Shown: positions 3,300 through 16,767 of the stretch, one piece after another
How positions within the stretch are numbered: the stretch's first letter is position 1
How the letters are laid out: every line of letters starts with the position of its first letter
NCBI GenBank assembly: GCA_018524725.1
Contig: JAEUWP010000186.1
Coordinates: 1-47,089 of the forward strand
Source: Podaxis mareebaensis
Taxonomy: Eukaryota > Basidiomycota > Agaricomycetes > Agaricales > Agaricaceae
Reading direction: 5' to 3'
DNA length: 47,089 nt
Notes under the pieces: model-generated
Seen by the model: the letters and a program-made list of their open reading frames with translations, nothing else
What the model was told of the DNA's origin: nothing
Databases searched by the model: none
Translations under genes and position numbers: made by a program

Positions 3300-3463
3300 C
3301 TATTTTAAGCCAATTTGCTGAGTCAGAGTATTTCTTCCTGATCCAATTACCATCAAATCAGTGGGCCCAGAAAGGACACTTGTGGGAGTCAGCAGCATGT
3401 TTGCCCTTGCAATTAGGGCAAGCAAATGATTCCCTGTGAGGACAGGGATGATCTGGCCTGGTC
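3300..3463 (-). pseudogene. Second retroelement ORF1 fragment (zinc knuckle), fused to truncated FunK1
   Basis: The minus strand encodes SFACPNCKGKHAADSHKC followed by PFWAH, a stop, then FDGNWIRKKYSDSANWL. The C-x2-C-x3-H-x5-C knuckle and the PFW-H-(stop)-FD-x-x-WI tail match the same ORF1 family as the fragment at 1350-2860, in the opposite orientation. It joins directly to the broken 3' end of the left FunK1 copy. The kinase reading frame runs straight into it, giving a chimeric ORF across 3358-3561. The join marks the outer end of the left arm of the inverted duplication. Confidence 0.7.
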
Positions 3464-4685
3464 ATCACAAAGGACCTTAACAAGCCCCTGTGGCCACTTA
3501 AACTCCTCAAGTGATCTCCCTGTGGGTTCTTTGAGAAATCAATAGTGCTGGCAGCAAACAAGGTTGACCACTTGGTCCACCCTCCAAGGTTTCTCAGTAT
3601 AATCTTGACTGATCATACAGTGATAGGCCCCCTCAATGTCACCACCACCCTGAAATTCTGGAACATGTGGTACACTCTTATCCCTCAGCTTCCTAATGAC
3701 ATCCTGTTCCTTCAGTGCACCAGGGAAATCCTCCTGCCAACCATCCTTTAGTACGAAAGTCCTCTTGTGAGCAGGTGACCAAACCTTGAAAACATGTCTA
3801 CCACGGCCAATGAGAGCCTCTGTATCGGCTGGCATCCCTTTCACATAGACCTTAGAATGGTCAGGGACCTCAAGCTTTAACTCCGGACTGGTCCTTGTTC
3901 CACTCCTTGGGAAATTGACGCACTCTTCTCTTGGCAGATGTAACCTTCATTCAGGAGAAATGTCATGCACTGTGGTGTCAATGCCGTGTTCTTTCATTGT
4001 CATGGGGCCAAACATGGACAAGAAAAGTACAAGAGGCCAGGGATCTTCACGGTAGTTGAATGGGCATGAGACGAGGATGCCAGACCAATCCACATGGAAG
4101 AAGCGAGCAATCTGCCCATCCATGAAAGTGGAAAACGCATGTGTCCTGAAATGGCACCCGAGCATCTCACTCAAGATGGCTGCAATCTGTCCCCTTGTTT
4201 TCCTGTGCTCAGCAAGATCACTCTCGAAGTGGAGTTGCCTAATCACTTCCTGTGGAGGGTTGGCAATAGGTGGGTTGGGCGCAGGGGGTCTTTGAAAGGA
4301 TCATGGTTACCCTTCTTGAGTTCGAATGGAAACAATAAGTCGTAAAACGATAGCCGGGAGTGGTCGTCTGGGGAGAATGTGACATCGTAAGTGGCTATGT
4401 CAGGCCTCCAGTTCTTGTCGGGAGAGGAGTGGGGGTCTGGGTCTGTGCTCGTATTCTCGAAGCAGAGACTTGAAATCTTGAGCTCATTTAAGGCAGAGAT
4501 CTAAACTAGATTGGCGGCGGCGGGCTGTGATCAAGAGTACGGTGACTTACCAGGGGCTCGTACATGGATTCCTCATCCATGTCAGATGGAGTATCACGGG
4601 ACATATCCCCCCCCTCGGGGATCATCGGGAGCGGGTTGTCTGGGGTAACACTGAGAAAATCGCTCATAAACTCGTTGAGCAGCAT
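3463..4685 (-). pseudogene. FunK1-type kinase, truncated copy with nonsense codon
   Basis: Left-arm copy of the intact kinase at 15545-17663. Exon 1 begins at ATG 4685 (MLLNEFMSDFLSV) and the first two introns are conserved. The third exon contains IRQLHFESDLAEH and ARFFHVDWSGILVS. The codon after HDISPE is TGA (3947-3949), where the intact copy has CGA (Arg). The frame then continues as KGMPADTEALIGRGR and WSPAHKRTFVLKDGW before the gene is cut off near 3463. The catalytic HCDIS loop and everything after it are missing. With both a premature stop and the loss of the catalytic half, it cannot make an active kinase. The TGA is the transition expected from deamination of a methylated CpG. Confidence 0.9.
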
Positions 4686-13070: not shown

Positions 13071-15244
13071 CCTATGAACACGGATAGGGTACGCTTAATC
13101 TGGTCCTTGCTCATTGACTGAGGTTGACTGGGTCCCCTCCCAGATCAATAAATTGCACCGTGATGAAGTCGAGAGCCACTTGCAGTTTGCTGGATTCCTC
13201 GTATTCCACGGCCCGCTCAAGACTGACGTTGTGGAAGCTCTCAAGATGTTGGCAGACTCCTCCCATCGAGTACGTCCTTGCATGTTGTTAATTTCACCAT
13301 CAACTGAACAAATATAGTGCGTTATGATTACAGGCGACAACCCCCTTACTGCTGTCCATGTCGCACGCGATGTCGAGGTCGTGGATCGGGACGTCCTGAT
13401 TCTCGATTTGAAAGAGAATCCGAAACATGAAGGAGGCAGGAATACCACATAAGCTCTAGCTTCTCGGGAACTGGCACTGATGAACGACCTTCATCTTAGA
13501 CCTAGTATGGCGCACCGTCGACGAGAGCAAGATTATCCCTGTGGATCCCCAAGAGCCTTTGGATGCTTCCCTACTTGGTGAAGACGATATTTGCGTGACT
13601 GGTGCTGCCATGAAACAACTCGAGAACAAACCGAGTTGGAATGGTCTCGTTCAGAGTACTTGGGTCTATGCGCGTGTGTCACCTTCGCAGAAGGAACACA
13701 TTCTTACGACTCAAGGCACTCGGATACATCACACTCACGGCTGGTGATGGTACCAACGACGTCGGCGCTCTCAAACAGGCCCATATTGGCGTGGCTTTGT
13801 TGGATGGAACACCGGAGGACTTGCAGAAGATTGCCGAACGCCAGAAGCTCGAGCGCATCAAGAAGGTGTATGAGAGTCAGCTCAAAATTTCAGCACGATT
13901 CAATCAACCACCACCTCCCGTTCCTCCTGCCATTGCTCATCTTGTGCCTGATGCTGTCAAAGCTCAACAACAAGCTGCTGTGGATCAGCAGGCTGCTCGT
14001 CAACGCAATCCTTTAGAGAAGGTAAGACGTCTTCTTTTGCGACCACCTACACTCTCATTGACCTTCGCTCCCCATAGTTTGATCTGGCATCAATAACTGA
14101 TAAGCTGGCGGGGAGGGAGAAGATGGTGTCCCAAAGATCAAACTTGGAGATGCCTCTTGTGCTGCGCCATTCACCTCAAAGCTGTCGCACGTTTCAGCCA
14201 GTAAGCTCATTCCTTTCAGGATTTTAAAGGGAATGCTGACCGTGACTTTTCAGTCACGCATATCATTCGTCAGGGACGTTGTACACTCGTCGCCACGATC
14301 CAGATGTACAAGATTTTGGCCTTGAACTGCTTGATCACAGCCTACAGTCTCAGTGTTCAATATTTGGATGGTATCAAGTTTGGTGATTACCAAGTCACAG
14401 TCAACGGCATGTTGATGTCCGTCTGTTTTCTATGCATCTCTCGTGCAAAGGTTTGTAAATGTTCGTTGGGTCATATCTTTCAGTTGCCTTATCGTTCTAC
14501 CACAGCCGGTCGAAAAGCTCTCCCGAGAACGTCCCTTGGGTAACATTTTTAACTTCTACGTCCTTCTTTCTGTCCTCCTGCAATTTGCGTTACACATCTT
14601 GTTATTGGTATACATCACAAATCTCACACGCTTGTATGAAGAGTAAGTTGATGATTCACTCTTGAAAGTGTATCTCTGCTAATTTGTGGAATAGGCGAGG
14701 TCCGGTTGACTTGGAAGCCAAATTCGAGCCTAACTTGTTAAATACTGCGATTTACCTTCTCGGCCTCTCCCAGCAAGTGTCGACGTTTGCCATCAACTTC
14801 CAGGTTTGTATTGATGTTTCCTCCCCTCGAGACTATACGTTACTTATAACGTTCCTTGTGGGGCCGACCGTTCCGTGAAGGTATTCGCGAGAATTCCGCA
14901 TTATGGTGGGGTCTGGTTGGCGCAAGTACTGTTGCATTTTCTGGAGCCACAGATTTCATGCCCGAGCTGAACCGCTGGCTCCAGATCGTCGAGATGGCCG
15001 ATTCGGTGGGTTTCGATGTATGTTCAATCTCTGCATAGTTCTAACCGTCTACTTGCAGTTCAAAATTCGGCTAACTGTAACTATGGTCCTCGATATGGTT
15101 GGTTGTTGGATCATTGAGAAAGTTTGCAAGTACCTCTTTGCCGATCTTGAGCCTAAGCCCATGATTACCAGAGGTCGTGAGAGACGGGAGGAGCGAAGAT
15201 TGGAGGAAGCTGCAGCGAAAGGGGGTGTTGATAAATCACAGTAG
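13071..15244 (+). pseudogene. P5A-ATPase, 5'-truncated and frameshifted duplicate
   Basis: Right-arm copy of the 3' part of the gene at 4984-9531. It starts mid-exon at CCTATGAACACGG, so the promoter, the N-terminal helices and the DKTGT phosphorylation site are absent. VWRTVDESKIIPVDPQ and the GDGTNDVGALK hinge remain. Two nucleotides are missing in the ILTT-LKSLGY segment (near 13707), and four are missing in the DKLAEMEGED segment (near 14111). Each shifts the frame, so the product would be out of frame even if transcribed. The C-terminal membrane exons are still readable, and the same stop codon ends the copy at 15244. No promoter precedes it, only the orphan FunK1 tail. Confidence 0.92.
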
Positions 15245-16767
15245 ATTATGACCTAGTTCCTCGATTATTTACTCTATTTACACCTTCCTGCAGCTTTCAA
15301 ACCAAGAATCGACTAGGATCAATGACGTCATTTTCGTTCGATGTCTTGGACCTCCTACCAGTGTATACTGAAACATAAAAAAACCAAGGATCGAAGTAGT
15401 ATGTTGAGGACATCTCCCAACATGCAGGTGAGTTGGCACCACAAGCGCAATCGAAACGCGATCCCCTGAAGCCATCTCGTAGCCAATGCAGCGCGGGCTC
15501 ATGACGCATACCAGGTGGAAACGCAAAACCATTGGATTGGTCCAATGCCGCTCAACGAATTTATGAGCGATTTTCTCAGTGTTACCCCAGACAACCCGCT
15601 CCCGACGATCCCCGAGGGGGGAAACATGTTCCGTGATATTCCATCTGACATGGATGAGGAATCCATGTACAAGCCCCTGGTAAGTCACCGTACTCTTGAT
15701 CACAGCCCGCCGCCGCCAATCTAGTTTAGATCTCTGCCTTAAATGAGCTCAAGATTTCAAGTCTCCGCTTCGAGGGCACGAGCATAGACCCAGACCCCCA
15801 CTCCTCTCCCGACAAGAACTGGAGGCCTGACATAGCCACTTATGATGCCACATTCTCCCCAGGTGACCACTCCCGGCTATCGTTTTACGACTTATTGCTT
15901 CCATTCGAACTCAAGAAGGGTAACCATGATCCTTTCAAAGACCCCCTGCGCCCAACCCACCTATTGCCAACCCTCCACAGGAAGTGATTAGGCAACTCCA
16001 CTTCGAGAGTGATCTTGCTGAGCACAGGAAAACAAGGGGACAGATTGCAGCCATCTTGAGTGAGATGCTCGGGTGCCATTTCAGGACACATGCGTTTTCC
16101 ACTTTCATGGATGGGCAGATTGCTCGCTTCTTCCATGTGGATTGGTCTGGCATCCTCGTCTCATGCCCATTCAACTATCGTGAAGATCCCCGACCTCTTG
16201 TGCTTTTCTTGTCCATGTTTGGCTCCATGACAATGAAAGAACGTGGCATTGACACCACAGTGCATGACATTTCTCCTGAACGAAGGTTACATCTGCCAAG
16301 AGAAGAGCGCGTCAATTTCCCAAGGAGTGGAACAAGGACCAGTCCGGAGTTAAAGCTTGAGGTCCCTGACCATTCTGAGGTCTATGTGAAAGGGATGCCA
16401 GCCGATACAGAGGCTCTCATTGGCCGTGGTAGACGTGTTTTCAAGGTTTGGTCACCTGCTCGCAAGAGGACTTTCGTACTAAAGGATGGCTGGCGGGAGG
16501 ATTTCTCCGGTGCACTGAAGGAACAGGATGTCATTAGGGAGCTGAGGGATAAGAGTGTACCGCATGTTCCAGAATTTCAGGGTGGTGGTGACATTGAGGG
16601 GGCCTACCACCGGACAATCAGTCAGGATTATACCGAGAAACCTTGGAGGGTGGGCCCAGCAGTCAAGCTTGTTTGCCGCCAGCATTATCGATTCCTCGAA
16701 GAACCCACAGGGAGATCACTTGAGGAGTTCGAGCGGCCACAGGAGCTTGTTAAGGTCCTTCGTGATG
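13071..16767. repeat. Right arm of inverted segmental duplication
   Basis: Reverse-orientation partner of 3463-7168, colinear through exons and introns. It begins inside a P5A-ATPase exon and the homology ends inside FunK1 exon 3, beyond which FunK1 continues intact. At the inner join, copy 1 of the direct repeat runs CGCACGCCTA and the left arm runs GAGCCTATG, so the breakpoint shares GCCTA microhomology. Confidence 0.93.

What the first reader, a model, noticed from the sequence alone, without database searches (positions are those of the whole stretch)
3463..16767. Inverted segmental duplication with reciprocal decay of two genes
Arms 3463-7168 and 13071-16767 are inverted copies through introns and spacers. 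The left arm keeps the only complete P5A-ATPase and a dead FunK1; the right arm keeps the only complete FunK1 and a dead P5A-ATPase. Each copy has silenced a different gene, so neither arm can be lost without losing one intact gene. The arms also flank RPL38 and S2P, so recombination between them would invert these two genes. An assembly artefact is unlikely because arms differ by substitutions and indels.
Basis: partly seen in the sequence, partly recalled or inferred. Interest (0 to 1): 0.82.

Follow-up and report, generated by a model that had tools for sequence, protein, structure and literature searches.

The report
Inverted duplication left by gene-order flip
In a mushroom genome, a stretch covering two genes was copied and the neighbouring DNA was probably then flipped, which best explains why each copy now has a different broken gene; it is a tidy but ordinary kind of genome rearrangement.

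Summary
The inverted arms are real: 3463-7166 and 16767-13070, 95.8% identical, the only two copies found in the 37-Mb genome. The left P5A-ATPase is complete and the only P5A found. The right P5A is a 3' half with two coding indels; the left FunK1 is truncated with two in-frame stops. A missed feature is an orphan FunK1 3' tail (12891-13074) fused at a 5-bp microhomology (GCCTA) to the start of the right P5A fragment. It includes the last codons of MetRS, so P5A, FunK1 and MetRS were once contiguous. Head-to-tail duplication followed by an inversion cutting the first FunK1 explains every block: the left FunK1 and the tail are then two ends of one gene. One inversion with staggered breaks plus a copied-in tail is the close rival. 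The left FunK1 lost CpGs in a gradient fading from the adjoining, almost CpG-free transposon sequence. Whether the right FunK1 is intact is undecided: its reading frame changes where either a 44-nt intron or a frame break must lie. Gene order in relatives could not be read.

The parts
3463..7166 (-). left arm: 5' part of FunK1 and 3' half of P5A (read on -)
   Evidence: self-BLAST 95.76% to 16767-13070; alignment
13070..16767 (+). right arm: 3' half of P5A and most of FunK1
4984..9531 (-). complete P5A-ATPase gene (about 1.2 kaa; ab initio model with small exon errors against relatives)
   Evidence: model; 2TM_P5A-ATPase and E1-E2_ATPase domains in its first 439 residues; relatives; only P5A found in the genome
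3463..4685 (-). FunK1 5' part, pseudogene: truncated, 2 in-frame TGA, CpG-decayed near the transposon
13070..15241 (+). P5A 3' half, pseudogene: no 5' half, coding indels of 2 and 4 bp, conserved residues changed
15545..17663 (+). FunK1 second copy, full length (start chosen by eye; the automatic model begins at 15401); reading frame changes between about 15942 and 16030, by a 44-nt intron or a frame break
12891..13074 (+). orphan FunK1 3' tail plus last codons of MetRS, fused to the P5A fragment
   Evidence: direct repeat 89.7% of 17587-17769
17587..17769 (+). parent of the orphan tail: FunK1 3' end and the MetRS 3' end
13070..13074 (.). duplication junction at 5-bp microhomology GCCTA (parents at 17765-17769 and, reverse complement, 7162-7166)
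   Evidence: sequence; tail alignment
3462..3463 (.). left breakpoint: transposon interior joined to FunK1 interior
   Evidence: 7 of 7 aligned copies of this transposon segment continue past this point with transposon sequence
1..3462 (.). transposon fragments with a single CpG (observed/expected 0.01)
4891..6455 (.). near-identical core of the left arm (right about 13777-15337): 19 substitutions in 1561 sites
4053..4331 (.). 279-bp identical tract (right about 15899-16177) that holds the frame change of FunK1
9852..10276 (+). RPL38 in the spacer
10500..12159 (-). site-2 protease-like Peptidase_M50 gene in the spacer (model probably incomplete at its 5' end)
17750..19726 (-). mitochondrial MetRS, converging on FunK1
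   Evidence: model; best relative 87% over 100%

Best explanation
The locus is the scar of a duplication and an inversion. Inferred ancestral order: S2P - RPL38 - P5A -> FunK1 -> <- MetRS. Step 1 (junction shown, event inferred): a 4.7-kb unit from inside P5A through FunK1 to the MetRS end was duplicated head to tail, joined at the 5-bp microhomology GCCTA; the second unit got only the 3' half of P5A and so a dead P5A. Step 2 (inferred): an inversion with one end inside the first FunK1 and the other beyond S2P flipped S2P-RPL38-P5A-FunK1(5'), losing about 0.8 kb. This put the 5' part of FunK1 at the left, beside transposon sequence, and left its 3' tail at the right. Step 3 (pattern shown, causes inferred): the left FunK1 decayed by CpG loss spreading from the transposon side, the right P5A decayed without constraint, and gene conversion kept the middle of the arms alike.
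For: The tail 12891-13074 joined to P5A at GCCTA is the junction expected of a head-to-tail duplication, and the tail contains MetRS codons (MetRS stop at 17750-17752), so its source lay beside MetRS. Left FunK1 (ends at the equivalent of 16767) and the tail (starts at the equivalent of 17587) do not overlap, and the missing piece was found nowhere else in the genome. The left junction is inside a transposon, not at its end (7 of 7 copies). A symbolic search over block orders reaches today's order in two steps from the inferred ancestor by tandem duplication then inversion with loss of one block; from today's orientation with FunK1 beside P5A only by two staggered inversions; from FunK1 native only beside MetRS by no two-step path. 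CpGs of the right arm lost in the left: 12 of 13 within 318 bp of the transposon, then 5/10, 0/10, 5/28, 3/71, 9/42; the reverse counts are 0/1, 1/6, 2/12, 4/27, 1/69, 6/36. Core of arms 19/1561 substitutions against 71/1428 and 57/707; introns 9/327 against 21/173.
Against: No relative's gene order could be read, so the ancestral order is inferred. The loss of about 0.8 kb of the first FunK1 has to be assumed; the staggered-break rival needs no such loss. The event set and the three ancestors given to one search were chosen by me, and three-step paths were computed only for the third. P5A and MetRS have equal listed contig lengths (so probably one scaffold) in only 3 of 49 species that I could pair by eye: Leucoagaricus sp. 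SymC.cos, Agaricus bisporus H97 and Crucibulum laeve; the other 46, including Cyathus striatus, differ, so linkage is at best a trait of near relatives.
Confidence: 0.52

Rival explanations
1. One event: an inversion with staggered breaks. The staggered piece (P5A 3' half plus FunK1 5' part) was kept at both ends in opposite orientation, and about 0.2 kb of FunK1/MetRS tail was copied in as filler during repair.
For: One search lists a staggered inversion followed by a copy of the tail as a two-step path from the same ancestor. Staggered breaks are reported as a cause of inverted duplications at inversion breakpoints, with genes affected (passages of PMC5080602 and PMC7584159). It needs no loss of the FunK1 middle.
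Against: The filler must by chance lie in the same orientation, end at the head-to-tail junction and not overlap the left FunK1 piece.
Confidence: 0.28
2. One reading: an inverted segmental duplication of an intact pair, after which each copy independently lost a different gene.
For: Each arm does carry one gene better preserved than its twin: at 18 non-synonymous P5A differences the left residue alone is seen in the five relatives used at 15, the right alone at 2 (tallied by eye); at 24 in FunK1 the right alone at 12, the left alone at 2. The right FunK1 may be intact.
Against: It does not explain the tail copy with its MetRS codons or the microhomology; the right P5A copy starts at a junction inside the gene; the left FunK1 is severed at a breakpoint inside a transposon. 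One search finds no two-step path from today's orientation other than two staggered inversions.
Confidence: 0.08
3. Recombination between the arms, in nature or as an assembly error, flipped the spacer: one arm was wholly dead and the other wholly preserved, and the flip shuffled them into the reciprocal pattern.
For: The core is nearly identical, with identical runs up to 279 bp; the contig begins inside repeats and equals the window.
Against: It still needs a circularly permuted copy (tail - P5A 3' - FunK1 5') to have been inserted, which is more steps; no reads could be examined.
Confidence: 0.12

Closest known systems
Inversions with inverted duplications at their breakpoints (Drosophila subobscura O4, O8; PMC5080602, passages seen)
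   Same: inverted duplicates at the two ends of an inverted segment, with genes cut or duplicated at the breakpoints
   Different: here an extra direct tail copy with a microhomology junction points to a tandem duplication first; single assembly, a fungus, no uninverted chromosome compared
Microhomology-mediated head-to-tail duplication (general class, recalled)
   Same: direct junction of a downstream end to an upstream interior with a few shared bases
   Different: the tandem array has since been split, on the preferred reading by an inversion
CpG-directed C-to-T decay of transposon copies in basidiomycetes (PMC4352252, passages seen)
   Same: C-to-T change at CpG, attributed there to methylation and deamination
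   Different: here the decay continues from transposon sequence into an adjoining gene fragment; methylation was not measured

Membership tests
inversion with breakpoint-associated inverted duplication | inverted copies at both ends of a unique segment | tested here: met
   the spacer itself was not searched for other copies except its right end
inversion with breakpoint-associated inverted duplication | uninverted order in a relative | not testable with these tools
   no fungal genome other than the window's own could be read; only listed contig lengths, equal in 3 of 49 species paired by eye
head-to-tail tandem duplication | direct junction of downstream end to upstream interior | tested here: met
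   FunK1/MetRS tail to P5A at 13070-13074
head-to-tail tandem duplication | two adjacent full units | tested here: not met
   first unit would be split: 5' part at 3463-7166, tail at 12891-13074, middle not found
reciprocal gene loss between duplicates | both genes intact in both copies at the start | tested here: inconclusive
   right P5A starts at the duplication junction, which argues against; ancestral state not observed
reciprocal gene loss between duplicates | one intact gene now in each copy | tested here: inconclusive
   P5A intact at left; right FunK1 open only with a predicted 44-nt intron, no transcript evidence
clean transposon insertion into FunK1 | junction at a transposon end with the rest of the gene beyond it | tested here: not met
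   7 of 7 copies continue past the junction; rest of the gene not found beyond it or elsewhere

The most novel reading that the evidence does not exclude
The arms still exchange sequence, and the dead left FunK1 overwrites its surviving right twin by gene conversion, to the point of passing on a frame break, so that a pseudogene breaks its own living duplicate. The frame change shared by both copies lies in a 279-bp identical tract, a run length reached in 1 of 20,000 shuffles of the FunK1-side substitutions; but 2000 shuffles over the whole arms reached up to 310, the direction is unknown, and the frame change may simply be a 44-nt intron. The odds were lowered from 0.15 on re-checking because.
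Probability: 0.06. Interest if true: 0.5.

Novelty: new member of a known kind. Interest (0 to 1): 0.3.

Why it matters
It shows how an apparent reciprocal loss of genes between duplicates can come from rearrangement breakpoints, without two intact pairs being silenced one by one. It also gives a clear within-genome comparison of CpG decay fading from a transposon edge into a gene fragment, against a twin that kept its CpGs. If the spacer can still flip, the locus is a small natural test for inversion polymorphism in a mushroom.

Tried and rejected
Clean transposon insertion at 3463 as the cause of the FunK1 truncation: rejected, since 7 of 7 aligned transposon copies continue past the junction. 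Lower divergence of the arm core through protein constraint: rejected, since introns are also less diverged there (9/327 against 21/173). A certain frame break in the right FunK1: I first held this and withdrew it. Four homologues put the two sides of 15942-16030 in different frames; the matches overlap for 2 of the 4 and leave 62 and 89 nt uncovered for the other 2. In the linker neither frame resembles the three homologues compared better than its shuffles (251 to 1046 of 2000 shuffles score as high), and a 44-nt GTGATT...CAG intron (15984-16027), the same in both arms, gives an open model. Its donor is weak and it is short, so a frame break stays possible. Extending the tail copy upstream to about 12867: not significant on its own (138 of 1000 shuffles score as high), so 12891 is kept. 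Reading gene order in relatives: the protein searches give no context; only listed contig lengths could be compared. Direction of conversion could not be settled. The FunK1 homologue search (9 proteins) showed none above 35% identity.
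Full report
The observation. Self-comparison of the window gives one long inverted pair, 3463-7166 against 16767-13070, 95.76% identical over 3706 columns with 4 gap openings. The left arm used as a query finds only these two places in the 36.95-Mb, 429-contig genome. The contig is exactly the window, 47,089 bases. P5A relatives point to Agaricaceae (86% to Leucocoprinus leucothites, 87% to Leucoagaricus sp. SymC.cos), and MetRS is closest to Macrolepiota fuliginosa (87%); the family name is recalled.

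The genes. The left P5A is open from about 9531 to 4984, carries the P5A transmembrane hairpin and an E1-E2 domain in its first 439 residues, and is the only P5A found in the genome. The right copy has only the 3' half, with coding indels of 2 and 4 bases: 26 synonymous and 18 non-synonymous codon differences plus 4 gapped codons; at the 18, the left residue alone is seen among five relatives at 15, the right alone at 2, neither at 1 (tallied by eye). The left FunK1 stops at 3463 and has two in-frame TGA; of 24 non-synonymous differences in the kinase piece, the right residue alone is seen in homologues at 12, the left alone at 2, both at 4, neither at 6. The right FunK1 runs to its stop at 17663.

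Is the right FunK1 intact? Undecided. Four homologues place the DNA before about 15942 and after about 16030 in different frames, in both arms. An automatic model bridges this with a 44-nt intron, 15984-16027, identical in the left arm. In the linker neither frame resembles the three homologues compared better than shuffled letters, so intron and frame break cannot be told apart here.

A direct repeat links 12891-13074 to 17587-17769 (89.7%). The second is the FunK1 3' end followed by the end of the converging MetRS (stop at 17750-17752); the relative's MetRS ends in much the same way, so this is the native MetRS end. The first is joined directly to the right P5A fragment through GCCTA, present in both parents at 17765-17769 and, reverse complement, 7162-7166 (sequence; alignment). 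A tail with MetRS codons fused to the inside of P5A implies that P5A, FunK1 and MetRS once lay in a row, and it is the junction that a head-to-tail duplication leaves.

How today's order arose. If a unit from inside P5A to the MetRS end was duplicated head to tail, and an inversion then cut the first FunK1 and reached beyond S2P, every block falls into place: the left FunK1 and the orphan tail are two ends of one gene, about 0.8 kb between them being lost. That piece was found nowhere else in the genome. A symbolic search with inversion, deletion, tandem and dispersed duplication, inversion with loss of one block, and staggered inversion (at most 13 blocks) gives four two-step paths from the inferred ancestor. 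They are this one, its equivalent written as a dispersed copy, a staggered inversion plus a copied tail, and an inverted tail copy plus a staggered inversion. From today's orientation with FunK1 beside P5A it gives one path, two staggered inversions, and from FunK1 only beside MetRS none of two steps and 14 kinds of three. The choice between the first and the staggered path rests on details and is not settled. Staggered breaks are a documented cause of inverted duplications at inversion ends (passages of PMC5080602; of PMC7584159).

The left breakpoint. Position 3463 joins FunK1 to the inside of a transposon: all 7 copies of this segment that were listed and aligned (L033-L039) go on with transposon sequence where the window turns into FunK1. 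The flank 1-3462 is built of repeats: 65 matches to 1-3480 and 40 to 3000-3475, each including the window itself and each a capped count.

Decay. The transposon flank has one CpG in 3462 bases. Right-arm CpGs lost in the left arm number 12 of 13 in the first 318 bases from the junction, 5 of 10 in the next 276, then 0 of 10, 5 of 28, 3 of 71 and 9 of 42; left-arm CpGs lost in the right number 0/1, 1/6, 2/12, 4/27, 1/69 and 6/36. Within the first 1430 bases loss falls with distance (Spearman -0.54). In the first 594 bases the left lost 17 of 23 and the right 1 of 7 (Fisher 0.009). No base is strongly favoured before the decayed C (13 A, 8 each of C, G, T). CpG-directed C-to-T change in basidiomycete transposons is reported and attributed to methylation (passages of PMC4352252); methylation was not measured here.

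Conversion. Divergence is uneven: 19 of 1561 sites in the core against 71 of 1428 and 57 of 707 on either side (Fisher 5e-15; 0 of 5000 shuffles as uneven), also in introns. The core limits were set after looking at the data. A 279-base identical tract in the FunK1 part is rare under that part's own rate (1 of 20,000 shuffles) but not beyond reach under the whole-arm rate (2000 shuffles reached up to 310).

Limits. No relative's DNA could be read here. Listed contig lengths for P5A and MetRS are equal in 3 of 49 species paired by eye (Leucoagaricus sp. SymC.cos, Agaricus bisporus H97, Crucibulum laeve) and differ in 46; lists were capped at 120 each. That supports linkage in near relatives only and says nothing of order. 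Paper searches were for background, seen as listings apart from the three papers whose passages are cited, and do not establish that this locus is undescribed.

Changes made on re-checking: the right FunK1 is now called undecided where I first wrote probably broken; the odds of the novel reading were lowered for that reason, and the interest slightly; the odds of the explanations are unchanged.

Noticed in passing
29795-38933: A second, direct duplication: a release-factor gene (PCRF domain) with a partial copy (30069-30947 and 32589-33467, 84.8%) and sequence with an Asn/Gly-rich reading frame repeated at 31060-32303, 33592-34855 and 35357-36531; 30001-39000 is CpG-poor (0.34).
   Followed up: partly
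3246-3321: A repeat of about 75 bases, 95-97% identical at many places, often at the very start of contigs (for example C24, C84, C391); the assembly seems to break there.
   Followed up: no
243-316: A predicted tRNA-Leu (caa) on the - strand lies inside the CpG-free repeat flank.
   Followed up: no
17587-17769: FunK1 and MetRS converge, with the FunK1 stop at 17663 and the MetRS stop at 17750-17752, so their 3' ends nearly meet.
   Followed up: yes
39139-40455: Short tandem arrays with 26- and 48-base units.
   Followed up: no
12791-12890: An AT-rich (31% GC) spacer between S2P and the orphan FunK1 tail, beside the inferred breakpoint.
   Followed up: partly
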